Below, one piece after another: positions 2,782-16,999 of a DNA stretch of 64,000 nucleotides (position 1 is its first letter; the number at the start of each line of letters is the position of its first letter). The stretch is from Paractinoplanes tereljensis (lineage in GTDB: Bacteria > Actinomycetota > Actinomycetes > Mycobacteriales > Micromonosporaceae): contig NZ_BOMY01000028.1 of assembly GCF_016862435.1 (NCBI RefSeq), positions 62,001-126,000 of the forward strand, in the 5' to 3' direction. The position numbers and the translations under genes are program-made. The notes under the pieces were generated by a model. It was not told where the DNA came from. It did not search any database and saw only the letters and a program-made list of their open reading frames with translations.

Positions 2782-3444
2782 ATGATTATGGGGCCGGCCG
2801 AGCTGGCGCAGGTGGAACAGAAGCTGTCGGTCGAGCGGCTGGCGCCGTACCGGACAGCGGCGAGCGGAGACCTCTCACTCGCCGTCCGGCTGTACGAGTG
2901 GAACACCGAGATCTCGGCCGCGTTGGGCAGCACGCTCGGGCATCTGGAGGTGCTCCTGCGCAACACCCTGAGCGACACCCTCACCACCTGGTCCGCCGCC
3001 CGGTTCGGCGAACCACGGTGGTATGTGGACCCGGGGGCGCTGCTGAACTATCAGGCCGGTCGCGATATCGACACCGCCCGGCGGCGCGCCACCCGCGGCG
3101 GACGCGCCGAGACCACCGGCCGGGTGACCGCGGAGCTGACCTTCGGCTTCTGGCGTTACCTGCTGACCGGCCACTACGAACGTACGTTGTGGCTGGGCTG
3201 CCTGCGGCCGGCGTTCCCCGGCCTCTACCGGCAGGGAATGCGCCGGGACGTCGACGCCGCGGTCAGCGAGCTGCACCAGGCCCGCAACCGCATGGCCCAC
3301 CTGGAGCCGATGTTTAACCGGCCGATCGGCACACTGCAGACCACCGCACTGAGGGTGGCCGGCTGGATCTGCCCGACCAGCCGCGACTGGATGGACGCCC
3401 AGTGCCGCGTGCCACAGCTACTCGCCAGACGCCCACTACCCTGA
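2782..3444 (+). CDS. Abi-like protein with HEPN RNase motif
   Basis: This 220-residue protein resembles the abortive-infection (Abi_2-like) family. It has the family's N-terminal helix LGHLEVLLRNTL, the central FWRYLLTGHYERTLW, and near residues 168-173 RNRMAH, an Rx4H motif typical of HEPN ribonucleases. Related proteins are thought to cleave RNA during phage infection; cleavage by this one is inference. The start ATG sits seven bases after GAGG, with a second in-frame ATG six bases on. It is transcribed away from pglY with 226 bases between the two starts, so both may share a control region. No antitoxin-like partner is encoded beside it on the same strand. Confidence 0.75.
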   Translation: MIMGPAELAQVEQKLSVERLAPYRTAASGDLSLAVRLYEWNTEISAALGSTLGHLEVLLRNTLSDTLTTWSAARFGEPRWYVDPGALLNYQAGRDIDTARRRATRGGRAETTGRVTAELTFGFWRYLLTGHYERTLWLGCLRPAFPGLYRQGMRRDVDAAVSELHQARNRMAHLEPMFNRPIGTLQTTALRVAGWICPTSRDWMDAQCRVPQLLARRPLP

Positions 3445-3500
3445 CTTTCGCCCGATGGTGCCTATAGCTCGAACTCACCCGCCCTTCACCGACGTTGCAG

Positions 3501-3904
3501 CTAGACGAGAAACGCAAGTCCTGGGAAGCCTTCGAAGTGCCGCCGGTTGTGGGTCAGTAGGGGAGCGTTGTGGTAGATCGAGGTTGCGCAGATCCACAAA
3601 TCATTTGTCTGGCTGTTATGTCCCAGTGGATGACCTGCGCTCTGTGCCTGACTCTTTAGTCGACCCCACAGCCGGGCAAGATCATCGTCGTAGGGGCGAC
3701 GACGTAGCGCCGAACCGCCTGATCGAGTTGATCAATGCGTCGTTGGCCCCAGCCAGCTTTGGCCGCACCAAAATGAACCTCGGCGACTGTGGTGAAGCTG
3801 ATCACCGGGACCGCGCCGATGAGATGCTGAGCGAAAGAGCTGGCCGCAACCGTATTCGTCCACAGATGTGAGAAGGCATCCGTGTCCACAACCACATACT
3901 TCAT
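3501..3904 (-). pseudogene. PIN-domain (VapC-like) toxin split by a single-base frameshift
   Basis: The first frame starts MKYVVVDTDAF, the usual PIN opening with the first metal-binding Asp, and runs to residue 82. Near base 3690 homology jumps to the next frame, which continues YDDDLARLWGRLK and then NDLWICATSIYHNAPLLTHN and ends RRHFEGFPGLAFLV, all classic VapC features. Adding one C to the run GCCCCTACGACGAT restores one reading frame of about 133 residues, the normal size for a PIN toxin. The ATG is 9 bases after the stop of the upstream antitoxin-like gene. Either the toxin has been inactivated, or the base is a sequencing error, or there is frameshifting. The downstream half is otherwise intact, so any loss is recent. 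Confidence 0.85.
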
Positions 3905-3913
3905 CGATATCAG

Positions 3914-4831
3914 TCACCCACGTGCCGAACGAATGGCGGTCATGAAGTCCTCAAGGTCGCCGATCTGTTCTCCGCCGAGTTCATCGACGGATCTCAAGGG
4001 CTGAACCTCTTGTTGACGCGCCAGGGTATCCAAGGACTCCGGCCGCGCGCTGGCCAGCCTCCCCAACCCGGTCAGGTGGAGCAGATGAATCGACGCGCCG
4101 TTGGGGTCGATCTCACCTATACCTTCGGCCATCACCATCTCGTCCATCGCGTCCAGGACCGCGTCGCGCAGATCTGGCCCGAAATCGCACAGCACGCTGC
4201 CCGCGTAGGTGTCGACACGGCAGCGCAGGGCGGCAGGGGAAAAGTCGCCCATATGTAGCCGGCCCACCACGGTTGCCATCTGTTGAACCGGCGTCGCGCC
4301 GATCGAGCGGATCGCGGACTGCAGCGCCGCGTCGACCGTGAATCGCGTTGTGCCACCACGGGCGAACTCAATGCGGGTGATCCCATCGGGACTGATGCCG
4401 CCGGTCAGATCACGAATACCGTTGATCACGGGTGAGGTGAAATGCGCCGGGAGAGTCGACGGATCGCGAAGAAGCGAGAGAATGCCCTCTTCCAGTGCGT
4501 CGAGTGTCCTGCCCAGAAGATCGTCCAAGCCAAGCTGACCGGTGCGCTCGACGTGGAGAATCGCCGACCCGGTTTGGAAACCAACGATGTCGAGACGGAC
4601 CGCGTCCACGATCTCGCGAGGTCGCCGCCCGGGCCTGGCGGTGCCTCCGCTGAGGCTCAGCGCGATCCGTTCCAGCGATGCCTGCAACCCGGAGGCCAGG
4701 CGAGCAAGTTCGGCAAGGGGTAGGCGGCCGCCCTCGGTCGAGGGACCCACCGCCTTGATCACGAGATCGAGGTCGCCGTCCGGCGCGTGCTGTGGCTGGC
4801 TCACCGATCTCACCTCCAACTGATCATTCAC
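3914..4831 (-). CDS. Uncharacterised protein upstream of PIN toxin (possible antitoxin)
   Basis: This 305-residue protein is not one I can name. The GTG start is chosen because GAGG lies just upstream in the minus strand. It is mixed alpha/beta with no signal peptide or membrane segment. A central stretch VVGRLHMGDFSPAALRCRVD followed by a CDFGP turn looks like the small beta domain seen in several large proteins that accompany PIN toxins, and the C-terminus (SVDELGGEQIGDLEDF) resembles an antitoxin tail. Only nine bases separate it from the broken PIN gene, so the two were probably a toxin-antitoxin operon. The antitoxin role is inferred from this arrangement. It remains intact although the toxin reading frame is broken. 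Confidence 0.55.
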   Translation of the reverse strand: MNDQLEVRSVSQPQHAPDGDLDLVIKAVGPSTEGGRLPLAELARLASGLQASLERIALSLSGGTARPGRRPREIVDAVRLDIVGFQTGSAILHVERTGQLGLDDLLGRTLDALEEGILSLLRDPSTLPAHFTSPVINGIRDLTGGISPDGITRIEFARGGTTRFTVDAALQSAIRSIGATPVQQMATVVGRLHMGDFSPAALRCRVDTYAGSVLCDFGPDLRDAVLDAMDEMVMAEGIGEIDPNGASIHLLHLTGLGRLASARPESLDTLARQQEVQPLRSVDELGGEQIGDLEDFMTAIRSARG

Positions 4832-5184
4832 GGTTCCTCGCCTCCCGCCCCTGCCGGCGATCTTCGCGTCGGCCACCGCGGGCGGGAGGAGCCGCATCTG
4901 CCATCATGCCCGACCGTTGCGAGAAACCATGGACCCGTCAGCAGGGTGCACCCAACCGGTCCGTGCCATTTCCGTCAGGTGGGTCCTTCTCGTCGCTGCG
5001 CCGGCCACTGGCCCCGACGCCTGTGGGACGCCGGGGCCGAGCTGCCTGCGGGGGCCTTCCCGCGGATCCGGACCTTGTCCGGTCCGATGAGTACAACCTA
5101 CTCGACCCGTCTACCCCTGTCTACATACGTACGTGTGCGTTGATGCCGGGAGGTGTACGTAACCGGTCGCCTACTGTCCGATCT
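4832..5184 (+). other. 353-bp divergent intergenic region with near-palindrome
   Basis: No gene is seen between the antitoxin-like gene (leftward) and the mini-GntR gene (rightward). Bases 5123-5136 form a near-perfect 14-bp palindrome, ACATACGTACGTGT, containing the 8-bp palindrome ACGTACGT. A related GTGTACGTAAC lies at about 5153-5163, and a GTCTAC pair repeats just upstream. These are plausible binding sites for the neighbouring GntR-type protein; that is inference. No convincing -10/-35 pair could be fixed. Confidence 0.5.
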
Positions 5185-5484: not shown

Positions 5485-8400
5485 TTACTGCTCGGGCACT
5501 CCGCGCAACAGGGCCAGCGCTGACCGGTCCGAGCTGAGCGCGCTCAGCTCGGCGTTGATGAAGTCGGTGAAGAATTGCGCGGGCGAGCCCGGAAACTCGG
5601 GTCGCTCCTCGGCGTACCACTGGTGTAGCCACGGCTCCAGCTCGACCAGACCGGCCAGGAACGGCAGCAGCAGGTCAGCCGGCCACGATTCCTGCGTCTT
5701 GCGGTCCAGGTAGACGGTGGCCAGCGCCTGCGCCTGCTGCAGGTGATCCCACCCAGCCCAGCCGAGCAACTCGCTGCCGTCGGTGGCCCGGCTCGCCTTC
5801 GGGTACGAGATGAACCGCTCCTTCGGCACGTCGAGCTTGCCGCGTGCCCGCCAGAACGAGGCCCGCAGGAAGTCCGCGGAGGTGTACTTCGGCGGCACGT
5901 CGATCTCGACCGACTCGCCGTCGTCCTCGCGGCGCTGCAACGCCCAGGTGCGCTCCCAAAAGCCCCGTTTGCGCAGCCCGGACGGTTTGTAACGCTGGGC
6001 CGGGAGGTACGGCACGTGCTCGTCACCGAGCAGCTGCCACAGAGCTTTGGTGAGGTCGTAGTCGTCGTGCCCCATCCACAGTTCGAGCACATGCCGGAAG
6101 TCGGCATCACCGCCGAGCCGGTCGGCGAGCTGCGCCACGGACAGCGGCAACGGCTGGCCGGCCCACAGCTCGGGAGCCTCCATCCGGTCGAGCAGCCAGT
6201 CCCGCAGGGCTTCGGCCTGCATCTTGTCCCAGCCCTCGGTGGCCCAGCGCCGCTTGCACTCAGGCCGCTCGATCAGCGCGAGGTGACGATTCTCCGCGAT
6301 GACTTTGATCCGCCGCTCGACCAACTCACGGTATTCAGCCGGCCAGTCCGAATTCACCTCGGCCTGAGGCGTCGACCCATGCCGGTTGAACCACTCAGTC
6401 TTTACGTCGTTGCGCGCCATGGCGATCTCGAACGCCCGATCGCCAAGCCTGATCCCAGGCGGATCAGGATGAGTAAGGTCATCGTCGATCAACCCATAAA
6501 GGCGATAAACCTCAAAATCCAATTCCTCCTGTACGGCGATCATGCGAGCCCGAATCAGCTCGTACTCGCCCCGAGCCGCCACCAGTCGCTCCCGTGTCGG
6601 CGCCGCCGAACCGGCAACCGAAGCGGGTGTCAATTGCGTCAGCCGCTGCGCAAGCCCGTCCAGCAGGCGAGCCCGATCAACTGGAAGGCTCGCAGGAAGG
6701 GGGAACTCCTCAAGTTTGGTGCCGGTGAACTCCCACCGGTCCATCCAGGGTTCTGGCTGGATTCCCCTCCCGATTCCGCTACCAGCCTTGCTTTGGCTGA
6801 CCTGCTTGAGCCAGAAGCAGGCGGTGGAACTGTTGAGCACCCCAAGCAGCCGGAGATGGTCCTCTTCCGTCGCGGCCTCCGGCAGTTTGATCACAGGTGC
6901 TGAACGATTGAAGAGCCGTCCTCGTCTGTCTAGCACAAAATGATTATGTGTAGCGACGAAAGCAAACGCTATTGTTGTTGGAGTGCGAATCTTTTCGCGG
7001 TAGAGTTCACGTATTTCATACCAAGAAAGATTCGGAATATCCTTGATTGATATGCCAAATCTCCGTCGATTTTCAAGAACCGTTCGGGAGGGCCACAGGT
7101 AGTCTATGATTTGAGGGATTTTACTTGGCTGTAGTGGCTCTAAGTGGTCGTCATATGGGAACACACATACCAGGCCAGTCTCGATAAGGTGGTCGCGGAC
7201 CCCTTCGCCAAGTACTGCTTCCCTGGCCGGCTCAATGGCCTTCCGGCTCGCTGCCCGATTGTTTAGTAAGTAGGCGTCGTCATCGCCCGTAATGACCGCA
7301 AATCCTGGTTTTGCGAAATCAGCCAACTTGCGCGAGGTCATCTTAATCTTCTTAAGAAGATCGACAGCTCCGCCACCCGACAAACTCCACGGATGCCGTT
7401 GAAGGTTGTCTCGACCGAGGGCGATGGTGCTTACCCATGGCGACTCTGATTCGCCTTCGTTGAGTTGGCGTACGATGGCATTCCATACAACGCCGTCAGC
7501 TGGAATTTCGGGCGTCGTGGGCTCACCCTGAATGCCTAGGACGGCGATGACGGTTGCAGAGCGTCGACGAAAATTTGAACGACCAATAAGAATAACCGTT
7601 GGTGTGCCGTGACCGGGAATGTAGGCACCCGATGTGTCGATTACTTCCGTCAGTTCTACCTCGTGGGCGAAGTAGTCCTCGATCAGTTTCTTGCCGAATT
7701 CGCGTTTCATGAACGCGTTTCCGGTGATCTGGCCGACGTGGCCGGCGCCGTCGCCGTGTTCGTCGGAGCGTTTTGCCAGGTCGAAGAAGCGCTTCGCAAA
7801 CGGGACCGTCAGGGCGTACTGCCGGTAGCACACCGTTGGGTACAGCTCCCGGTATTTCTTGTTCAGAGCCGAGTCCGCCACCGTGATGTAGGGCGGGTTG
7901 CCGACCACGACCGTGTATTGGCCCGGCCGTAGGTATTCGGTGAGCAGGTCGTCGTCCTCGCTCGCGTACGCGAAAGGCTTGTCGGTCTGCCAGCGCAGCA
8001 GGTCGGTCTGCTCGACCGACTTGCCGGACCCCCAGGGCAGCAGCGAGTCGCCGGTCGCGACCCGGATCGGCCAGGCGGGTGTGCGTTCGAGTTTAGTCAG
8101 CCCGCACACCTTCATGGCTGCCACCAGAAGGCGGAACCGGGCGATGGCTACCGCGAACGGGTTGATGTCGACACCAGTTACCTGGCTCAGGGCCTTTTCG
8201 GTGTGCAGGCGGATGTCACCGGCCGGTTCCCGGGCCTGCCATTGACGGACCAAGCGGTCGAAGGCGCCGAGCAGGAAGTGGCCGGAGCCGCAGGTCGGGT
8301 CGATCACTGACGTCTCGGAGAGGCCGAACTCTTTCACGGCGGGCTTGAACGTCCGGTCGAGGATGAACTTTTCGACGAACTCCGGGGTCTGCAGCAGCGC

Positions 8401-8982
8401 GTACGTCTTCTTGGCGTGCGCACTCAGGTCCTGGTAGAGGTCGCCCAGGAAGCGGGTGTCCAGTTCGTCGCTGCGTAGCGAGCCACGGCCGGCACCCTTG
8501 CGGAAGAAGTCGCTGAGGCTTTCGGCGGCGGGGCCGGAGATGTCGTATCGCCAGATCGGGTTGTGGTTGTCGAAGATTTTGCCGGTGGCCCGCAGGCGGG
8601 CCAGATAGCGGAACGCTTCGCGCAGCCATTCCCGGTCGTTCTCGCGCGGATTGGCGATGATGTAGGCCTGCCGCCCCTGCACCGCGTCGTCGGAGCGGGC
8701 TGCGGGCTCGTCACCGCCGATCCACAGACCGTCGACCAGGCGATTGTCCTCGCAGAACCGGACGAAGACGCAACCCAGTACCCAGGCCACCGCGGCCTGG
8801 TCGAGCTGGTCGTCCAACCAGGCCTCGAAACCGCTGGCCGTACGCTCGGCCTGCCTGGCGCCGTCATGCTCCGCGCGCAGTTCCGAGCGCAGGCCGGGCG
8901 ACTGCGCGAGCTGATCTCGGAGATCCTCCACGAGGAACCGGACCTGCCCCTGCAGGGCCTTGCGGGTGGCTTCGTCAATCAC
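5485..8982 (-). CDS. pglX: PglX adenine-specific DNA methyltransferase (type 2 BREX)
   Basis: PglX marks host DNA and is required for phage exclusion in BREX. The 1,165-residue length is normal. Residues about 227-236 (IDPTCGSGHF) form the SAM-binding motif I, and residues 362-365 are the catalytic NPPY of N6-adenine methylases. The central part, about residues 435-700, is the likely target-recognition region, with family-like pieces such as WYEIRELYREK, NHFVLD and GVLNSSTACFWLK. That part of the gene is far richer in A+T than either end. The start is GTG with a weak ribosome site, 28 bases after the DUF262 gene, so it is probably the last gene of the pglW operon. No long G-tract of the kind that phase-varies pglX in Streptomyces coelicolor was seen. 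Confidence 0.92.
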   Translation of the reverse strand: MIDEATRKALQGQVRFLVEDLRDQLAQSPGLRSELRAEHDGARQAERTASGFEAWLDDQLDQAAVAWVLGCVFVRFCEDNRLVDGLWIGGDEPAARSDDAVQGRQAYIIANPRENDREWLREAFRYLARLRATGKIFDNHNPIWRYDISGPAAESLSDFFRKGAGRGSLRSDELDTRFLGDLYQDLSAHAKKTYALLQTPEFVEKFILDRTFKPAVKEFGLSETSVIDPTCGSGHFLLGAFDRLVRQWQAREPAGDIRLHTEKALSQVTGVDINPFAVAIARFRLLVAAMKVCGLTKLERTPAWPIRVATGDSLLPWGSGKSVEQTDLLRWQTDKPFAYASEDDDLLTEYLRPGQYTVVVGNPPYITVADSALNKKYRELYPTVCYRQYALTVPFAKRFFDLAKRSDEHGDGAGHVGQITGNAFMKREFGKKLIEDYFAHEVELTEVIDTSGAYIPGHGTPTVILIGRSNFRRRSATVIAVLGIQGEPTTPEIPADGVVWNAIVRQLNEGESESPWVSTIALGRDNLQRHPWSLSGGGAVDLLKKIKMTSRKLADFAKPGFAVITGDDDAYLLNNRAASRKAIEPAREAVLGEGVRDHLIETGLVCVFPYDDHLEPLQPSKIPQIIDYLWPSRTVLENRRRFGISIKDIPNLSWYEIRELYREKIRTPTTIAFAFVATHNHFVLDRRGRLFNRSAPVIKLPEAATEEDHLRLLGVLNSSTACFWLKQVSQSKAGSGIGRGIQPEPWMDRWEFTGTKLEEFPLPASLPVDRARLLDGLAQRLTQLTPASVAGSAAPTRERLVAARGEYELIRARMIAVQEELDFEVYRLYGLIDDDLTHPDPPGIRLGDRAFEIAMARNDVKTEWFNRHGSTPQAEVNSDWPAEYRELVERRIKVIAENRHLALIERPECKRRWATEGWDKMQAEALRDWLLDRMEAPELWAGQPLPLSVAQLADRLGGDADFRHVLELWMGHDDYDLTKALWQLLGDEHVPYLPAQRYKPSGLRKRGFWERTWALQRREDDGESVEIDVPPKYTSADFLRASFWRARGKLDVPKERFISYPKASRATDGSELLGWAGWDHLQQAQALATVYLDRKTQESWPADLLLPFLAGLVELEPWLHQWYAEERPEFPGSPAQFFTDFINAELSALSSDRSALALLRGVPEQ

Positions 8983-9010
8983 AGGCAGATCTTACGGCCG
9001 AGACGGTGAG

Positions 9011-10699
9011 CTATTCGTGCTCCGTGTCGTCGTCGGCCACTCCGATGAGATCGCGGGTGAGTTCCACCCCGATGTCACCGGCAAACGCACGCAGCTTCTC
9101 GCCGAGGAAGCGGGCCCGGTAGTCCAGGAACAGTTCCTCGTCTCCGTCCAGCATGCGTTGCCAGGCGATCTCCGGAATGCCGTGGCTCTCCAGGATCTCC
9201 GAGGCCCGGCCCCACAGGTCGTCCCGCAGGGACCGTAGTGCCGTTTCCAGCCGGAGCCCGGGCGGCGTGGGCAGGACCAGGCGGTTGGCTGGCCTGGGGT
9301 CGCGCGGGTAGACGGGCCGGTATGCCTGGGCGGCGCCGGCCGCCAGCCGCTGCAGGACATCGAATTTTTGACCGAGCGAATCGAGGCGATGGCGGAATTC
9401 GCCTGCCTCCCAGGCCACATAGGCGAGGGTTCGCGCGCTGTTGAGGTTGAACTGGTCGGGCACCGGCTGTACGGCCGCGACGTCGAGTGCCAGCCTGGTG
9501 ATTCGTCCGTCGGCGAAATCGCGCATCTCCTGCAATGCCCGGCGGAGGGTCGTCGAGGTGGCTCCGGCGTAGGAACCGGCCCACGAGGTGACCCAGAACC
9601 ACCGGCGCAACTCGTAGCGCTCATTGCCGGTCGGGGGTGCCCCGCGCTCGTTGCAACGGTGGAAGAAACCGGTCAAGATCACCAGCTGATGGGCGTACGG
9701 CAGCAGCGAAGCAAGCGGCAGCCCGGCCCATTGCAGAAACTCGACCGCGGCATGGATGGCTTCGGTAGCCTTCGGTACGGCGGTGGCCATGCTCTTCTGC
9801 ATCCGGTCGGCCACCAGTTCCCACCGCGGGCTCATCACGTCGACCTCGCCCGCGACGGCCAGGATGGACCGGAAGACCGCGGTGCGTGGCAGCTCGCCGA
9901 ATTCGGTGTTGGCCACCGCCTCGACGATGGTTTCGATGTGCTCGGCCATGGTGGGCTGGTCGGAACGGTGGGTCAGCGCCGAGACGACCTGGTCGGCCTC
10001 CATCCGCACGCCGCGCCGGTTGAGCCTCGTGTAGACCTCCACGGCCTCATTGAGGCTTCCGCCGCGGAGTTTGATCACCGCAAGTTTGTAACTGCGGAGC
10101 CGGCTGGCGACCTGGTCGGCCTCATTGATCAGGCGTTCGAGCCGCTTCCCGTCGCCGATCTGGAGTTCGAGATTGCGGGAGAACCGAAGAAAGTCGATGG
10201 TGCCGGCGACGGCCCGCACCGGCATCAGCGTTTCCGGCACCCGAGCCGGCGACGATCCCTCGGCCCGGAAGTGCCGGTAACGGTCCCGGCTCGGATGCTC
10301 CTTCAGGTCCAGGTCGCGGTAGATCCGCCATTTCCACTCCCGCTGGTCGTCGAAGCGGGGCGTCCGCCCGAGCCGGCGCAGCACCCCGAAGAGGGTGGAC
10401 AGGCGTTGATGACCGTCGAGCACGTAGGACGCGGGCCGGTCGAGCGGCGGCGGTGGCACCTCGACCTCGCCGACGCTGCTCAGCGAAAGGACGTTCTCGG
10501 TGGTCTCCCACAGCAGGATGCTGCCGATCGGGTAGCCGCGCTCGATGCTGTCGAACAGGTCGAGCATCTGCTCGGGCCGCCAGACGAACGGTCGCTGGAA
10601 CTTGGGCACCCGGATCAGCCCGCGAGCGATGTCCTCGAGGATGTCGCTCAGCAGTTCAACGGACGGGGCAAGCCGGCTGTCGGCGTCGTCGCTGAGCAT
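9011..10699 (-). CDS. DUF262 (GmrSD N-terminal-like) protein in Pgl operon
   Basis: The first 110 residues carry the DUF262 signature: VPKFQRPFVW at 31-40 and DGHQRLSTL from residue 95, a variant of the ParB-like DGQQR nucleotide-binding motif. In GmrS/GmrSD and BrxU enzymes this domain uses NTP and is followed by a DUF1524 HNH nuclease. Here, in 562 residues, no HNH-type His motif could be found in the C-terminal half, so it may be a sensor or a partner needing a separate nuclease. It lies 12 bases after the TOPRIM-like gene and 28 before pglX, on the same strand, so it is surely co-transcribed. A defence role is inferred from family and position. Confidence 0.85.
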   Translation of the reverse strand: MLSDDADSRLAPSVELLSDILEDIARGLIRVPKFQRPFVWRPEQMLDLFDSIERGYPIGSILLWETTENVLSLSSVGEVEVPPPPLDRPASYVLDGHQRLSTLFGVLRRLGRTPRFDDQREWKWRIYRDLDLKEHPSRDRYRHFRAEGSSPARVPETLMPVRAVAGTIDFLRFSRNLELQIGDGKRLERLINEADQVASRLRSYKLAVIKLRGGSLNEAVEVYTRLNRRGVRMEADQVVSALTHRSDQPTMAEHIETIVEAVANTEFGELPRTAVFRSILAVAGEVDVMSPRWELVADRMQKSMATAVPKATEAIHAAVEFLQWAGLPLASLLPYAHQLVILTGFFHRCNERGAPPTGNERYELRRWFWVTSWAGSYAGATSTTLRRALQEMRDFADGRITRLALDVAAVQPVPDQFNLNSARTLAYVAWEAGEFRHRLDSLGQKFDVLQRLAAGAAQAYRPVYPRDPRPANRLVLPTPPGLRLETALRSLRDDLWGRASEILESHGIPEIAWQRMLDGDEELFLDYRARFLGEKLRAFAGDIGVELTRDLIGVADDDTEHE

Positions 10700-10711
10700 G
10701 CCGCCAGTCTC

Positions 10712-11557
10712 CTACAAAATCTCGCGGATCATGTTGAGCACGCGGCGCAGTTCATCGACGGCTCCCGGTCCAAGCTCGTCGAAGTCGTCCTCGGTGACCG
10801 ACACCTGGTGCGGGATGAGCGGGTGAATTTTTCCCAGCCGGTCGCGGATCTTCAGCTTTCCCCGCTGTTCGGGCGCCATCGCGCGGACAGCCGACAGCTC
10901 CCGGAGGCGGTGCTGATCGGTGGACAGGTGAAACTCCCACACCGGGAACGGTACGTAGTTCTCCACGCTGCGCCAGTTCCACACGTGCACCCGCGCTCGC
11001 CCGTCGGCCCGGATCTCGTCCGCCTGCTTGTTGCTCTCCGAGCCGGCTCCGCCGTCACTGTCCAGCAGCGCAGCCACTCGGGCGTGCCGCCGGAACAGCT
11101 TGCACTCCTCGAACACCAGCCAGGCCATCTGGGAGTTTCCACCGCCGTGCTGGATCCGCAACCAGCCTCGTGTGATCGCGTCGCCGATCCGGCTGCCGTC
11201 GAGCACGGCTGCCAGCCGCTGGAGGAATCCGCCGTCCGCCCGCTTGTTCTCGACCACCAGGACCGCCGGGTGGGCGAGGTCGTTGGCCATCTCGGTCAGG
11301 TTCGACACGCTGACGCTGATCGGTGCGGCCGCACCCTTCGTCGGGTACGCGGACTCCTTGACCGCCTCCCGCGCCCACTCGGCGAGCGCCGGAACACCGA
11401 TCACCGTCGTTACCCGGCCGACGAATCGCTCCGCCTTGATGGCCTCTGGCGGCTTCGGGCGCCAGTCGTGCCGGTGTTCCGCGACCATCCGGAGAATGTC
11501 CAGGGCGAGACCGTTGTCGTCGACCTCGAAAATAGCGACGTCGATGTCAAGAAGCAC
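10712..11557 (-). CDS. TOPRIM-like nuclease partner of upstream ATPase
   Basis: This 281-residue protein has the pattern of a TOPRIM fold: an acidic strand VLVVENKRAD near residue 104, then HGGGNSQM, then a DxD strand ALLDSDGG, and WRSVENYVP near the end, as in OLD-type and DUF4435 nucleases. Its first 100 residues are not recognised. The GTG start overlaps the end of the ATPase gene by 11 bases, which indicates translational coupling. ATPase plus TOPRIM pairs occur in OLD, Gabija and PARIS defences, where the ATPase senses infection and the TOPRIM protein cuts nucleic acid; the same is inferred here. It does not match Gabija (no helicase gene) and its long N-terminal part is unlike AriB of PARIS. 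Confidence 0.65.
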   Translation of the reverse strand: MLLDIDVAIFEVDDNGLALDILRMVAEHRHDWRPKPPEAIKAERFVGRVTTVIGVPALAEWAREAVKESAYPTKGAAAPISVSVSNLTEMANDLAHPAVLVVENKRADGGFLQRLAAVLDGSRIGDAITRGWLRIQHGGGNSQMAWLVFEECKLFRRHARVAALLDSDGGAGSESNKQADEIRADGRARVHVWNWRSVENYVPFPVWEFHLSTDQHRLRELSAVRAMAPEQRGKLKIRDRLGKIHPLIPHQVSVTEDDFDELGPGAVDELRRVLNMIREIL

Positions 11558-12851
11558 GGTCGCTCCGGTCGGCCTGGGCGGCAGCCAGCGCCCGCACCTC
11601 GTGGTAGTCCTGCGAGAAATAGCCCTCCGGCCAGCTCTCGTCCAGGTTGCCCAGATCGTCGAGCCCCACCCGGCGGACGGTCGACACACCGTCGACCTGC
11701 TCGACCACGTAGATGGCGACCGTGTTGGGACCGTAGTCGTTGTCGACCTCGGCGATCCGGCGGCGCAGCCGCAGCAGCAGGGTCTCGCTGTGGGTCTCGA
11801 TCAGGAACCGGGTGCCGGTGTCCCGTGCCGTGGCGAGGTAGAGGTCGGCCAGCTCGGCGTGGGCGGCCGGGTGCAGATGCAACTCCGGCTCCTCGACGAT
11901 CTGCAGGGGGGTCCACCATGTCTCACCGTTCATCTCGTCCAACGCGCACTGAGCGAGGATCGGTAGCACCTGCGCGAGACCACTGCCTGCGTCGGCGAGG
12001 TTGACCTGCACCTTGCTGCCGGCCCGGGTCAGCACCGTCGAGCGCAACGGCCCGGCCGGCACCTCGTCGATCTGCCAGCCCGGCACGATCGCCGCCAGCC
12101 GTCGATTCATCAACCGGAGCAGCTCACCGTCGCCGCGGTCCCGGTCGTGCGCCAGCAGCGCCGGCAGCCCCTGCCCGCGATTGCCGATCCCGACGGGATC
12201 GCCGTGCGGTTTTCGGTGTTGGCGGCCGACCACCTCGCGGTACGGCCCGAGGTATCGGATGGGTCCGGGGTTGAGGTCCGGTACGGTGAGATGCGGGATG
12301 AGCCCGGAGAAGCCGACTTCCCCCGTGCGCGGCTTCGCCTCGTGTTCCGTCCGGATCTCGTACTCGCCGGGGTGATCTGGGTGGAAGGGGCCGAAGGACG
12401 GCCGTTCGGCGATGCCGTCGATGTCGGGCGTTGCGGCCTCCGCGGCGGCCAGCCCGGATGACACGAGATCGAGCCAGCCCCTGTCCCGGTCCCGGTTCAG
12501 GTGCAGCCGGGTCACGACCGCCTGGCGGGTCGCGTCGTCGTAGGTCAACTCGGCGTTGAGCCGGAACGATTGCGGAGCGTCGACGGACAGCCCCAGCTCC
12601 AACGGACGCAGGGTGTTGTTCTCGAACAACAGCTCCCGGAAGTCGTCCACCGCATCCGCACCAAGACGGTCGAGGTCGAGTGGCGCTGGCGACCGGGTGC
12701 CGAAGCCGGTGGCCAGCAGCAGCGGGAGCCGGGTCAGCGCGCTCTTGCCGGAGTTGTTCTTGCCCAGGATGACGGTAACCGGGGCCAGCTCGATCTCGTG
12801 CCGATCCCGGAAACTGCGGTAGTTACCCAGGACTAGGCTGCGGATTGCCAT
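11547..12851 (-). CDS. AAA/ABC-type ATPase (OLD/SMC-like, DUF3696-like C-terminus)
   Basis: This is a 434-residue ATPase of the AAA_15/AAA_21 kind. It begins MAIRSLVLGNYRSF, with Walker A GKNNSGKS at residues 30-37, an ABC-like signature DAGSGLAQVLPIL, Walker B VEEPELHLHP and the switch His in FLIETHSETLLLRL. The C-terminal WPEGYFSQDYHEVRAL resembles DUF3696. The ATG is 14 bases after the pglW stop; longer in-frame starts would run into pglW. It overlaps the TOPRIM-like gene, so the two are probably a functional pair inside the Pgl operon. Such ATPases usually hold a nuclease inactive until phage is sensed; that is family knowledge, not shown here. Confidence 0.85.
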   Translation of the reverse strand: MAIRSLVLGNYRSFRDRHEIELAPVTVILGKNNSGKSALTRLPLLLATGFGTRSPAPLDLDRLGADAVDDFRELLFENNTLRPLELGLSVDAPQSFRLNAELTYDDATRQAVVTRLHLNRDRDRGWLDLVSSGLAAAEAATPDIDGIAERPSFGPFHPDHPGEYEIRTEHEAKPRTGEVGFSGLIPHLTVPDLNPGPIRYLGPYREVVGRQHRKPHGDPVGIGNRGQGLPALLAHDRDRGDGELLRLMNRRLAAIVPGWQIDEVPAGPLRSTVLTRAGSKVQVNLADAGSGLAQVLPILAQCALDEMNGETWWTPLQIVEEPELHLHPAAHAELADLYLATARDTGTRFLIETHSETLLLRLRRRIAEVDNDYGPNTVAIYVVEQVDGVSTVRRVGLDDLGNLDESWPEGYFSQDYHEVRALAAAQADRSDRAS

Positions 12852-12865
12852 AGTGGACAGTTCTA

Positions 12866-15800
12866 TCAGACGGTTGCCTTCAGCCACCCGTCCGGAACCC
12901 ACAGCAACTGGCTTGCCGGAGAGGTGAGCGGCACCGGCACACCGTCCAAAAGGGCTGGTTCCGGTCGCCAGGCCGGGACGAGCAGCAGACGGGCCGCCGG
13001 ACGTGGCCGGGTCGGGTCGGCCAGCTCCTGCAGCAGCTGCATCTGCCCGTAACGAGCCAGTGGGGCGGCCTCGGTGATCAGGAGCGGTGACTCGGCCGAC
13101 AGGGCCTCGCGGATGGCCGGCACCACGTCGTGCTGCACCAGCTCCACGAGACTGCGGAAGTCGGGGTCGGTGGCCGACCCGTTGTCGGCCTTGACGATCG
13201 TTTCCCAGGGGTAGCCGAGGCCGCGCAACCGGTCCAGCAGGAGCGCGGTGACGTCCACCTCGACGAGGTCCAGGCGGTCCAGCAGTGCCCGCCGCACGGC
13301 CGTGAGTCGCCGCAGCGACGTCAGCACCGCCAGGAAAGCGTGCCGGTCGATCACTGTGGACAACCGGGCCGCGACCTCGTCCGGCTGGGCGGTGCCGATC
13401 AGCGTGCCGCCGGTGATGCCGGTGCGGGACCCGGTCATCCCGGTCAGCTGCGACGGCTGTTCCGGGGGGCCGTAGAGACGCTCGTTGGCGTTCCAGGTCA
13501 GCGGCACCGCGCAGCGGCGCAGCAGATCGGTGAGGCCGGGCCGTAGTGGCAGTGGCTCGGCGCGCGGGAATCGGGCCCGGACCCGGTCGCGGACCTCCTC
13601 GGCATTGAGTCGCTGGCCGATCAGGCTGCCGGCAGTCAGCCGCAGTGCCCGGTCTGCCGCCATCCGGTCGGGGTAGAGCTGGCCCTGCGCGTTGACGTCG
13701 ACGCGCCCGTTGCTGCCGGCCGCCGCCAGCTGCAGCAACCGCAGGTCGGTGACGGCCGGCATGCCGGCCGGCCCCGGCAGGGTTCGCAGATCCTCGACGG
13801 CCCGCTGGCGTGACGGCAGCGGGTCGGCGGCAGCCAGTACGGCCGATCGGTCACCGAGTGCGACAACGTAGCCCAGCAGGTCGGCCGCGGTGGTCTCGGC
13901 GGCCGGATCGTCCGGCTCCCGACCTACCAGGACCGTGTCGGACTGCCGGAACCGCTGGATGGCCACCCGCGCGTCGCCGCCGAGGGACAGCTCCACCTCT
14001 ACCGCGGCGCGGACGAGGCCGATGGCCTGCGTGGTGCGTTTCGGCTCGGGGGTGTATGAGCCGCGGGTCGCGACCAGCGCCTCGCCGATCTCGACGGCTG
14101 ACATCACCGAGCCACGGGCGTCCAGCAGGCCGACGATCTCATCGCGGACGGCGGACAACCCGGCGTCCTCCGTCCACGGCGTGATCTGTTTACGCAGCAG
14201 AACCGACACCTGCGGCTGGGTCTGGCCGGTGAAGCGGGCCACCTCCGACTGGGTGGGCCAGTGCAGCAGCGTGTCGCCGCCGCCGGAGGACTGGCCGAGC
14301 AGGACGGCCAGGGTGGTCCGGGTCTTGCGGTTGCGGGATGTCTCAGCCGGGAGCAGCGCGGCGCACAGGGTCTCGATGGCCTGCGACCCGGAGTCGTCCT
14401 GGGCGGCCGGTGCCGCCGCCGGAGTGGCCACGGCGGCCCGCAGGGCGCGGGCCTGCGCCAGGATCTCCTTCCGGGTGGCGTCCGGGATGTTGCGGGCCCG
14501 GGTCAGCTCGGACTGCGGGGCGTCCAGCAGATCGCCCACCGTGACGAAGCCGAGCCTCTCCAGCGCCGAACGCGCCCGAGCGGTCAGGTCCGTGACAGCC
14601 AGCGGCGACATGCGGGTGATCGGTGCCGCGGCACCCGGTTCGGCCGGGGTGGCCCCCGCGGGCGGAACCGCGCGGAAGATCGCCCGCCAGGTGTCGAGCA
14701 TCTCGTCGACGGTGTGGAAGCGGTCGCCGGCCTCCCGGGCCAGTGCGCGACCGAAGAAGTCGACCATCCGGTCGGCGACCGCCTGGTCGAACATCGCCGG
14801 GTCGAGCGTCACCTCACCGCTGACCGAGGCCGGGTTGGCGCCGCCCCACTCCGGCAGGGTGCCGGTGGCCATCTCGAACAACGTCACCGCGGCGGTGAAT
14901 CGCTCGGCGGCGGCGTCGTAGCGGGGCCGGCGAGGATCGCCGAGGAAAGGATCGATATAGCCGGTGGTGCCGGCCTGGTACTGATCGGCCGGAGTGGAGG
15001 AAAGCGAGAAGTCGAAGACGCAGAGGTGCCGCTGTTTGTCCTTCGGCCTCGGTCGGGCGGCCAGGTTGGCCGGTTTCAGGTCCCGGTGCCACACGCCCTC
15101 GCCGTCCAGGTAGGCGACGATTTCCAGCAGATCGCGGCCGTAGCGTCCCAGCAGGTCGAGGGCGAGGCGGCCGTCGCGCAGATCCTGGGCCAGGGTCTTG
15201 GGGCCGGCCGACTCCATCAGCAGCGAGGTTCGGCCGCCGACCTCGATCGGTTCTTTGACCAGGGCGACCACCTGTGGGTGGCGAAGCTGCCGGAGGGTTT
15301 CGGCCTCGGCGATCAGGCGATCGTGGTGCCGTTCGTCGCGGGCCACCTTGAGTACCAGCTCGCGTGCCGGCTCACCCTCCGCGGCATCCTCCTTCACCAG
15401 CAGCGCCACCGCCGTCGCCCCGGCGCCCAGCCGGCTGACCACGGTCAGACCCATGTCGAGCCGGTCGCCCCGGTGCGCGGTCAACGGGTCCACGACCGGT
15501 TCGGGCTCTGGAGCGGTCAGTTCCTCCCAGACCCGATCCAATCGGCTGCGGAAGGCCGCCACGCTGCCCAGACGTTGAGCCGGGTCGCCACGGGTCGCGT
15601 CGTACAGGGCGTCCACGAGCGCACTGGGCATGCCGTCGACCGCAGCCGCCAGATTTACCCCACTGTCGCGCACCGCGGTGGCGAGTTCCTCCGCCGAACT
15701 GGCCGGCGGGCTACCCGCAAAGATCCGGTGCGCGATCGTGCCCAGGGAGAAGACGTCCAGTTGGTGGCCGTGCGGGCGGGTGGCGGTCGCCACCTCCGGG

Positions 15801-16999
15801 GCCTGATACCGCCTTACCTCGTCGTCGAAGAACAGCTCCAGACCGGACGGGTCGCTGACGGAGCTGGTGCGGGTCATCCTGGTCCCCGCCGGCAGGCGAC
15901 CGCCGGTTTGCCAGTTCGTCACCACCAGACGGGGCCGGGAGGCATCGGGGTCACACACGTACACAGCAGCGGGGTGCAACGCCCGGTGTGCCAGGCGCCG
16001 GGAGTGCGCGTAATCGATGATTTCCGCGAGATCGCCGATCAGGTGCAACCGCTGGGCCATGGTCAGCCGATCGCCGCGCTGCACCAGCCAATGGTCGAGG
16101 CGAACCCAGTCCTTCTCGTGGTCGAAGACCACAGCCGGGCCCCAGGCGTGCTCCACCAGGTCGTGTGCCCCAGCGATGCCAGGGTGGTGGATGCCCTGCA
16201 GGAGCCGGAACTCGCGCTCGGCGGCGCTGCGGATCGCCGGCACGTCCTCCTCGGCGGCCCGGCTGGTCAGATAGAACCTGACCCGTCGCAGCAGCCCGGT
16301 GTCCAGCATGTGAGCGGCGAGGAAGTCCTGCCAATCCGGCCCCTCGGCCATCGGCCGGGCATGGATGATGAGCTGCCCGACCTTGCGATTCGCCACTGAC
16401 GGCCGGATCTTGGCGCCCTTGACCAGCTCGACGATCTCGCGGCCGCGGTCCAGATCAATCCGGTGTTTCGGGTTGAGCGGCTGCGCCAGAAGCATCTCTC
16501 GCAAGCTCGGCAGTCCGGACTCGGCACGGCCGTGCAATCCGTAGACGTGCTGCCGGCCGATCGCGTCCAGATCGGCGGTCAGATTCTTCGCGTGCAGGAA
16601 CACCGCCGCTGCTACGTACGGGCTGGCTGCGGCCCGGCCCTGCCGCCGGGCGTAATGGCTGATCAGGCTGGCCAGCCGCTTCGCCTTTCGGTTGGCCAGA
16701 ACGTACGGGTTGTCCTCGGGGATCAGCCGGGAGTTGGGCGCACGGCGCACCCACTGGCTGCCGTCCCCACGCAACTCTCCCTGCCAGTGCTTGAGCTCCA
16801 ACACGTACAGGCCGCTCGGGGTGAGAACCAGGGCGTCGATCTCGTTGATCGACCCGTCACCGGCGACGAACTCGACGTTCGCCCACACGTGGTACGGATC
16901 GGAGTCCGGCAGGTATGACGCCAGCTCGCGCAGACCGTCCTGCTCGTGGAGGTAGGCACTCGCGTTGATCTGCTCCCACCGCGGCGAATCCTCACGCAT
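12866..16999 (-). CDS. pglW: PglW: NERD domain plus tandem kinase domains (type 2 BREX)
   Basis: PglW is the serine/threonine kinase of the Pgl system. The 1,377 residues begin with a NERD nuclease-like domain (about 1-190) with NEIDALVL and LYVLELKHW supplying the D and ExK residues. A first kinase-like domain (about 240-470) has HRALHP at about 337 where HRD is expected and looks inactive. A second (about 510-770) keeps VLKVARDE for the Lys, HRDLKPAN near 637 and a DFS in place of DFG, and looks active. About residues 790-840 resemble the helix-hairpin domain of RNA polymerase alpha. The ATG start faces the reductase gene across a 177-base divergent region, so this is the first gene of the operon. 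Confidence 0.9.
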   Translation of the reverse strand: MREDSPRWEQINASAYLHEQDGLRELASYLPDSDPYHVWANVEFVAGDGSINEIDALVLTPSGLYVLELKHWQGELRGDGSQWVRRAPNSRLIPEDNPYVLANRKAKRLASLISHYARRQGRAAASPYVAAAVFLHAKNLTADLDAIGRQHVYGLHGRAESGLPSLREMLLAQPLNPKHRIDLDRGREIVELVKGAKIRPSVANRKVGQLIIHARPMAEGPDWQDFLAAHMLDTGLLRRVRFYLTSRAAEEDVPAIRSAAEREFRLLQGIHHPGIAGAHDLVEHAWGPAVVFDHEKDWVRLDHWLVQRGDRLTMAQRLHLIGDLAEIIDYAHSRRLAHRALHPAAVYVCDPDASRPRLVVTNWQTGGRLPAGTRMTRTSSVSDPSGLELFFDDEVRRYQAPEVATATRPHGHQLDVFSLGTIAHRIFAGSPPASSAEELATAVRDSGVNLAAAVDGMPSALVDALYDATRGDPAQRLGSVAAFRSRLDRVWEELTAPEPEPVVDPLTAHRGDRLDMGLTVVSRLGAGATAVALLVKEDAAEGEPARELVLKVARDERHHDRLIAEAETLRQLRHPQVVALVKEPIEVGGRTSLLMESAGPKTLAQDLRDGRLALDLLGRYGRDLLEIVAYLDGEGVWHRDLKPANLAARPRPKDKQRHLCVFDFSLSSTPADQYQAGTTGYIDPFLGDPRRPRYDAAAERFTAAVTLFEMATGTLPEWGGANPASVSGEVTLDPAMFDQAVADRMVDFFGRALAREAGDRFHTVDEMLDTWRAIFRAVPPAGATPAEPGAAAPITRMSPLAVTDLTARARSALERLGFVTVGDLLDAPQSELTRARNIPDATRKEILAQARALRAAVATPAAAPAAQDDSGSQAIETLCAALLPAETSRNRKTRTTLAVLLGQSSGGGDTLLHWPTQSEVARFTGQTQPQVSVLLRKQITPWTEDAGLSAVRDEIVGLLDARGSVMSAVEIGEALVATRGSYTPEPKRTTQAIGLVRAAVEVELSLGGDARVAIQRFRQSDTVLVGREPDDPAAETTAADLLGYVVALGDRSAVLAAADPLPSRQRAVEDLRTLPGPAGMPAVTDLRLLQLAAAGSNGRVDVNAQGQLYPDRMAADRALRLTAGSLIGQRLNAEEVRDRVRARFPRAEPLPLRPGLTDLLRRCAVPLTWNANERLYGPPEQPSQLTGMTGSRTGITGGTLIGTAQPDEVAARLSTVIDRHAFLAVLTSLRRLTAVRRALLDRLDLVEVDVTALLLDRLRGLGYPWETIVKADNGSATDPDFRSLVELVQHDVVPAIREALSAESPLLITEAAPLARYGQMQLLQELADPTRPRPAARLLLVPAWRPEPALLDGVPVPLTSPASQLLWVPDGWLKATV

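What the first reader, a model, noticed from the sequence alone, without database searches (positions are those of the whole stretch)
9011..12851. ATPase + TOPRIM-like + DUF262 block nested inside a Pgl (type 2 BREX) operon
Between pglW and pglX lie three genes in tight order (gaps of 14, -11, 12 and 28 bases): an OLD/AAA_21-like ATPase, a TOPRIM-like partner with an unrecognised 100-residue N-terminus, and a DUF262 protein without a visible HNH domain. Canonical Pgl loci are pglW, X, Y, Z. The strand and overlaps show they are made with Pgl. I infer that they form a second, co-regulated defence layer, perhaps a fallback when BREX is blocked, or that DUF262 and the TOPRIM protein supply the missing nuclease.
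Basis: partly seen in the sequence, partly recalled or inferred. Interest (0 to 1): 0.85.

Follow-up and report, generated by a model that had tools for sequence, protein, structure and literature searches.

The report
Portable three-gene defence module inside Pgl
Three genes inside a bacterial anti-phage operon form a portable, self-contained unit, already listed as an untested defence candidate, in which a DNA-sensing type of protein has an eroded cutting site and is paired with a separate nuclease and an ATPase.

Summary
An ATPase, a TOPRIM-type nuclease and a DUF262 protein lie between pglW and pglX at the stated coordinates and gaps, inside a complete type 2 BREX/Pgl locus; pglY runs into the window's start and pglZ, brxD and brxHI follow outside it.

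The trio is not new as a family: the proteins match PADLOC's untested candidate PDC-M55A/B/C. No AriB (PARIS) or NsnC (Menshen) model matched its TOPRIM proteins. It is a conserved, movable unit: 65 of 80 relatives returned by one scan carry it in the same order and strand, and 9 of those 65 show Pgl genes in the flank held. A tree needs three changes between Pgl and non-Pgl; one Pgl group has the opposite orientation. So 'made with Pgl' and 'missing nuclease' are weak.

Added here: the DUF262 protein models like BrxU, but its HNH motif is eroded. The first motif residue is lost in 64 of 64 trio members, the second (catalytic His) in 46; 11 of 14 non-trio relatives keep both. The other three each have an overlapping putAbiC gene. 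Best reading: a type IV-like sensor that acts through a nuclease in trans.

The parts
12866..16999 (-). pglW (NERD + kinase), upstream Pgl gene
   Evidence: PADLOC PglW PDLC02512, 1514 bits over residues 4-1375
11547..12851 (-). ATPase, PDC-M55A; Walker A GKNNSGKS, Walker B EEPE, ETHSE switch
   Evidence: PDC-M55A 507 bits, profile 1-420/421; G30, N32, G35, K36, E320, E323, H354 invariant in 63 sequences
10712..11557 (-). TOPRIM nuclease, PDC-M55B (281 aa, GTG start)
   Evidence: PDC-M55B 277-280 bits; model pLDDT 95.2
11288..11557 (-). N-terminal part of the TOPRIM protein, residues 1-90, mainly helical, barely tested by structural matches; H30 in 60 of 65
10715..11287 (-). OLD-type TOPRIM domain, residues 91-281; E103, D166, D168 present in 65 of 65
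   Evidence: 6nk8 Z 11.4, 8ux9 (PARIS AriB) Z 9.0, 8u7i (GajA) Z 8.2
9011..10699 (-). DUF262 protein, PDC-M55C (562 aa), BrxU-like model
   Evidence: PDC-M55C 761 bits, profile 1-554/554; BrxU 7p9k Z 17.4, 466 aligned, rmsd 16.6
10403..10417 (-). DGHQR nucleotide motif (residues 95-99), intact
   Evidence: D95, G96, Q98, R99 invariant in 64 sequences
9260..9382 (-). eroded HNH region (residues 440-480): R461-P462 where HNH-bearing relatives have His-His; N472 is kept
8980..8994 (-). promoter-like TAAGAT 6 bases before the pglX GTG
   Evidence: pattern defined after looking
5485..8982 (-). pglX, downstream Pgl gene
   Evidence: PADLOC PglX PDLC02529, 1610 bits
1..2684 (-). 5' part of pglY; pglZ, brxD and brxHI follow outside the window (locus L002)

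Best explanation
[quoted passage not shown] Shown by sequence, model and comparison: a BrxU/GmrSD-like DUF262 protein with an intact NTP motif and an eroded HNH motif, an OLD-type ABC ATPase, and an OLD/AriB-type TOPRIM protein with its acidic residues intact, kept together in order. Inferred: the DUF262 protein senses foreign DNA, most likely modified DNA as BrxU does, and NTP turnover in it licenses the ATPase, which then releases the TOPRIM nuclease on phage DNA or, PARIS-like, on a host target. Placed in Pgl it would cover phages that Pgl cannot restrict. It is a partner of Pgl, not a part of its mechanism.
For: PDC-M55A/B/C matches. 65 of 80 loci hold the trio in the same order and strand; 65/65 TOPRIM and 64/64 DUF262 proteins match the M55 models. 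TOPRIM fold and E103/D166/D168 in 65/65. BrxU-like DUF262 model, DGHQR residues invariant. HNH motif: first residue lost in 64 of 64, second His lost in 46 of 64 including the window; both kept in 11 of 14 non-trio relatives (the one text match to the motif in a trio member, L051, lies elsewhere in the protein). The three non-trio relatives without the motif each have an overlapping upstream putAbiC gene. Mobility: three changes on the tree, a mobilizable plasmid and one viral contig. BrxU itself sits inside a BREX locus and complements it against phages with modified DNA (PMC8565348, passages).
Against: No experiment; the trigger is inferred from fold only. HNH loss is not clean: 18 of 64 trio members keep a His at the second motif position (BrxU H475 by motif), 3 of them in the window's own clade, and N472 is kept in 64 of 64, so a residual metal site in some copies is not excluded. 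The window's TOPRIM has Arg where 52 of 65 have Lys, and is shorter near its C-terminus. The 80 loci came from patterns of trio DUF262 proteins, and 29 of 109 confirmed hits were not returned, so co-occurrence is biased upward. Pgl absence was judged in the flank held, with the window's own Pgl proteins; 16 of the 56 have under 5 kb on one side. Tree counts cannot tell gain from loss.
Confidence: 0.47

Rival explanations
1. PARIS-like fallback: the ATPase senses an anti-restriction protein that blocks Pgl (as AriA senses Ocr) and releases the TOPRIM nuclease to abort infection; DUF262 only regulates.
For: The ATPase matches an AriA model (73 bits) and the TOPRIM model resembles AriB (Z 9.0). 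PMC12839542 (section 35, part 1 read) argues that PARIS-like modules in BREX loci answer Ocr-type inhibitors. In the order, own genome left out, 5 of 6 genomes with the trio or the ATPase-TOPRIM pair have PglX, against 45 of 390 others (Fisher p 1.5e-4); the genomes are related, so not independent.
Against: 56 of 65 trios show no Pgl genes in the flank held. PARIS has no DUF262 protein, while here all three genes are kept. No AriB model is among the 5 families that matched 65 TOPRIM proteins at E up to 0.01.
Confidence: 0.25
2. The trio supplies a nuclease to Pgl and works only with it.
For: Same strand, short gaps and constant position just before pglX in the window's clade.
Against: The Pgl locus is complete with PglZ; trios occur without Pgl nearby, on a plasmid, and in opposite orientation.
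Confidence: 0.05
3. The pglW-pglX junction tolerates insertions and the trio is a passenger there, functional but unconnected to Pgl.
For: 17 of 45 trio-free PglX loci have 1.7-7.1 kb between the pglW and pglX matches; the fillers look mixed (MgtE, peptidases, integrase, AbiEi and others).
Against: Three Pgl-linked groups, each kept together on the tree, and the enrichment above.
Confidence: 0.2

Closest known systems
PDC-M55 (PADLOC-DB candidate)
   Same: all three proteins match M55A, M55B, M55C; same gene set
   Different: a library entry only: 0 papers in the library hold the term PDC-M55, and the preprint behind the PDC names was not available to read
Menshen (NsnABC)
   Same: related ATPase (hhalign 99.9%) and DUF262 N-terminal domain (97.3%)
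   Different: NsnC shows no detectable relation to the TOPRIM protein (hhalign 0.4%, two NsnC sequences only); order DUF262-ATPase-NsnC in the loci read; NsnC loci lie apart from the trio in the 3 genomes with both. Against this, the review PMC10952713 (passages) says that an OLD-type TOPRIM domain is associated with a Menshen component; I did not resolve that.
PARIS (AriAB)
   Same: OLD-type ATPase with a separate TOPRIM nuclease
   Different: no DUF262 protein; no AriB match by profile; the OLD chain scores above AriB on the TOPRIM model
BrxU / GmrSD
   Same: DUF262 protein with the same overall fold; BrxU too is found inside a BREX locus
   Different: HNH motif eroded here; a nuclease-type protein is encoded next to it
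OLD-ABC + TOPRIM backup effectors in BREX loci (PMC12839542)
   Same: described there as a recurring pattern in BREX and related loci
   Different: the passages I read name no DUF262 third gene; supplementary data not read
GrwAB (PMC12137116, passages)
   Same: DUF262-based modification-dependent defence with two genes
   Different: GrwA keeps an active DUF1524 nuclease; described as GrwA + GrwB, without OLD/TOPRIM genes

Membership tests
PDC-M55 | M55A, M55B, M55C homologues together | tested here: met
   507, 277 and 761 bits, adjacent genes
PDC-M55 | anti-phage activity | not testable with these tools
   needs experiment
Menshen | NsnA-type DUF262 and NsnB-type ATPase | tested here: inconclusive
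   NsnB 122 bits, NsnA 27 bits; hhalign 99.9% and 97.3%: distant relatives
Menshen | NsnC as third protein | tested here: not met
   0 of 65 TOPRIM proteins match the NsnC model at E up to 0.01 (PDLC03879 is NsnC); hhalign 0.4% against two NsnC sequences
PARIS | AriA ATPase | tested here: inconclusive
   AriA 73 bits, far below PDC-M55A 507
PARIS | AriB by sequence profile | tested here: not met
   no AriB model among matches of 65 proteins at E up to 0.01; the fold is related, Z 9.0
GmrSD/BrxU type IV enzymes | DUF262 with DGQQR-type motif | tested here: met
   GmrSD_N 91 bits; D95, G96, Q98, R99 invariant in 64
GmrSD/BrxU type IV enzymes | C-terminal HNH (DHIYP-type) nuclease motif | tested here: not met
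   window has R461-P462; first motif residue lost in 64 of 64, second His in 46 of 64, Asn kept in 64 of 64; no DUF1524 match in the families listed for 64 members (first 25 of 33)
Gabija | GajA fused ATPase-TOPRIM plus GajB helicase | tested here: not met
   ATPase and TOPRIM are separate genes; the third protein is DUF262, not a helicase

The most novel reading that the evidence does not exclude
DUF262 sensors of the GmrSD/BrxU kind form a plug-in platform: branches of them lost the HNH nuclease and swapped it for effectors in trans (OLD-ATPase + TOPRIM in PDC-M55, a putAbiC protein in another branch), so that one type of modified-DNA sensor can drive either restriction or abortive infection.
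Probability: 0.4. Interest if true: 0.72.

Novelty: new member of a known kind. Interest (0 to 1): 0.55.

Why it matters
It gives a catalogued but unexplained candidate a testable mechanism and shows that a supposed part of Pgl is a portable unit. If the sensor/effector swap is real, it would help to explain why several defence systems carry DUF262 proteins without a DUF1524 nuclease domain (PD-T4-2, Menshen and Dazbog in PMC10952713, passages), and says where to look for their effectors.

Tried and rejected
Full-length PARIS, Gabija and Menshen were considered and not accepted (membership table). A profile search of solved structures with the TOPRIM alignment gave one chance hit (E 0.26). Foldseek alone gave no hit under E 0.001 for the TOPRIM model (best 0.028, OLD); the firmer support is from VIA-align 2, which only re-aligns Foldseek's candidates. 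For the DUF262 model SspE also matches (Z 10.2). Pfam at E up to 10 listed no DUF1524 among the first 25 of 33 families for 64 DUF262 proteins. TOPRIM against phage records: no match. I tested whether fillers of the pglW-pglX junction are mostly defence genes: they look mixed (55 ORFs of 150 aa or more from 17 gaps, called by a simple GC rule; tallies show the first 25 of 50 and of 30 families). Neighbours of the 56 trios outside Pgl (102 ORFs) include some defence matches (DrmA, DpdF, type III methyltransferase, type IV enzyme); in the 25 of 99 families shown each has one member. One of the 56 (L066) has a weak BrxHI match (64 bits), taken as a generic helicase.

Rows dropped before counts: L069 from A4; L057 (broken reading frames) and L075 (start not found) from A5; L057, L079 and L103 from A6; so '65', '64' and '63' are the window plus 64, 63 and 62 of the 65 trio loci. 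L062 (TOPRIM tail and DUF262 at a contig end) was counted as non-trio in '65 of 80' and left out of the HNH comparison, which therefore uses 14 of the 15 non-trio loci.

Full report
What is there. On the minus strand the window holds pglW (12866-16999), an ATPase (11547-12851), a TOPRIM-like protein (10712-11557), a DUF262 protein (9011-10699) and pglX (5485-8982), with gaps of 14, -11, 12 and 28 bases. The Pgl locus is complete: the 5' part of pglY lies at the window's start, and pglZ, brxD and brxHI follow on the same contig. Between pglX and pglY lie one minus-strand ORF (3914-4897) and two plus-strand ORFs (2782-3444, 3455-3871).

What the three proteins are. Each matches a PADLOC candidate: PDC-M55A (507 bits), PDC-M55B (277 bits) and PDC-M55C (761 bits). 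PMC12988326 (passages seen) says that PDC names come from a 'guilt-by-embedding' search and cites Payne et al. 2024, a bioRxiv preprint not held here and not read. 0 papers in the library hold the term PDC-M55.

TOPRIM protein. AlphaFold2 with 65 sequences gave pLDDT 95.2. Residues 94-281 match the C-terminal region of OLD (6nk8, Z 11.4, 170 aligned, 3.4 A); PARIS AriB (8ux9, Z 9.0, 153 aligned, 4.1 A) and GajA (8u7i, Z 8.2, 145 aligned, 4.2 A) follow. E103, D166 and D168 are present in 65 of 65, D108 in 63. The first 90 residues are mainly helical, with H30 in 60 of 65, and were barely tested by these matches. The window copy has Arg at 238 where 52 of 65 have Lys; that this Lys is the catalytic one of OLD nucleases is a guess from recall.

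DUF262 protein. Model pLDDT 92.5. BrxU (7p9k) aligns over residues 10-544 (Z 17.4, 466 aligned; the rmsd of 16.6 A suggests that the domains sit at a different angle). The DGHQR residues are intact. I aligned 64 trio members with 14 non-trio relatives. Most relatives have HHI(F/Y)P where BrxU has DHIYP (D474-H475; PMC8565348, passages). The first of these residues is His in 11 of 14 non-trio relatives and in 0 of 64 trio members. The second, catalytic by analogy, is His in 11 of 14 and in 18 of 64; the window has Pro. A nearby Asn (N472) is kept in 64 of 64 and 11 of 14. So the motif is eroded throughout the trio family and clearly lost in the window, but residues of the site survive in some members. 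The 3 non-trio relatives without the motif (L082, L097, L104) each have an overlapping upstream gene with a putAbiC domain; those genes are 34-42% identical to each other. Of the 11 with the motif, L098 has an overlapping upstream ThyX gene and L107 a 129-aa ORF 36 bases upstream without a Pfam match; none of the other 9 has a same-strand ORF of 100 aa or more within 36 bases, though L091 holds only about 350 bases upstream. This fits a sensor that lost its nuclease in cis and gained an effector in trans; the order of events is inferred.

Distribution. One scan of 84,980 species genomes with the DUF262 alignment confirmed 109 relatives and returned the best 80. 65 of 80 have ATPase, TOPRIM and DUF262 in this order on one strand, from Actinomycetota, Myxococcota, Pseudomonadota, Acidobacteriota, Bacteroidota, Cyanobacteriota and others. 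Pgl genes lie near 9 of these 65: L029-L033 between pglW and pglX on the same strand; L051 and L055 between pglX and pglW on the opposite strand; L052 and L053 just after brxHI. Of the other 56, 40 have at least 5 kb on both sides. In a draw of 397 genomes of the window's order, 51 have PglX over the cut-off, and in 6 of these (own included) the trio lies between pglW and pglX; one further genome (G723) has the ATPase-TOPRIM pair, with no DUF262 or Pgl match in the stretch read. In the phylum draw 4 of 396 genomes matched the TOPRIM model, own genome included, two of them weakly. The trio is also on the mobilizable plasmid pYEE5 of Paracoccus yeei, on one viral contig, and in Nonomuraea without Pgl within 14 kb on each side.

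History. On a tree of 71 DUF262 proteins the Pgl-linked rows fall into three groups (7, 3 and 2 rows), each with starred support, and starred branches force three changes (a quick tree, SH-aLRT only; the counts cannot tell gain from loss, but position and orientation differ between the groups). Two close Pgl relatives (L132, L135; PglW 65% identical) have no trio: there the pglW stop and the pglX start overlap as ATGA, so the two genes are probably translationally coupled without the trio. Of 45 trio-free PglX loci, 25 have under 1 kb between the pglW and pglX matches, 17 have 1.7-7.1 kb and 3 have no PglW in the stretch read. In the window's clade the stretch between pglW and the trio varies (14 bases here; a DDE_3 transposase in L020; a SNF2 helicase in L022 and L023), while in the 7 members aligned the trio ends about 30 bases before pglX.

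Expression. In the window and the six clade members aligned with it, TARRAT lies 6 bases before the GTG of pglX. A similar element precedes the ATPase ATG by strict pattern in 3 of those 6 (L029, L033, L022) and not in the window. The pattern occurs once in the window against 0.01 expected, but it was defined after looking. It resembles a leaderless actinobacterial promoter (recalled). So pglX may not depend on read-through from the trio; in the window the trio itself could still be read through from pglW.

How it most likely works. Shown: gene set, conservation, folds, intact TOPRIM and NTP motifs, eroded HNH. Inferred: the DUF262 protein senses modified or foreign DNA, the ATPase relays the signal, the TOPRIM protein cuts. 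In a Pgl strain this would catch phages whose modified DNA escapes Pgl, as BrxU does beside BREX (PMC8565348, passages). The rival is a PARIS-like fallback triggered by anti-restriction proteins.

Known or new. The family is catalogued, and embedding in defence loci is how such candidates were found. PMC12839542 (section 35, part 1, and passages read) already describes OLD-ABC/TOPRIM modules as backup effectors in BREX and related loci; the passages read name no DUF262 third gene. A search for papers holding at least two of DUF262, putAbiC, DUF4435, 'degenerate HNH' and 'lacks DUF1524' found none; a broader one listed 10 papers, of which I then read passages of two. What is added here is the HNH erosion tied to effectors in trans, the three Pgl-linked groups, the trio-free site with overlapping pglW and pglX, and the comparison with Menshen and PARIS. 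On Menshen one point is open: PMC10952713 (passages) places an OLD-type TOPRIM domain in it, while I found no relation between NsnC and this TOPRIM protein.

Noticed in passing
window 2782-3444 (+); L034 7104-7769; L035 7087-7758: An Abi_2-like gene (weak Pfam match, below cut-off) lies between pglY and pglX in the window; homologues (29-32% identical) sit directly upstream of the trio in L034 and L035, the sister group of the window's clade.
   Followed up: partly
L082, L097, L104: DUF262 proteins without the HNH motif, each with an overlapping upstream putAbiC gene: looks like a two-gene system of its own.
   Followed up: partly
L098 8949-9950: An HNH-bearing DUF262 gene overlaps a ThyX (thymidylate synthase) gene.
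   Followed up: no
L021 (G723): ATPase + TOPRIM pair without DUF262, followed by a 205-aa protein and a 1030-aa protein with AAA and HerA-like domains.
   Followed up: partly
L022, L023: A SNF2-family helicase lies between pglW and the trio on the Pgl strand.
   Followed up: partly
L072 4110-6217: Fragments of a second ATPase-TOPRIM-DUF262 set upstream of the intact one.
   Followed up: no
window 10844-10846: Arg codon in the TOPRIM protein (residue 238) where 52 of 65 members have Lys; the protein is also shorter near its C-terminus than many relatives.
   Followed up: partly
window 3914-4897 (-): A 327-aa ORF between pglX and pglY with no family above cut-off.
   Followed up: no
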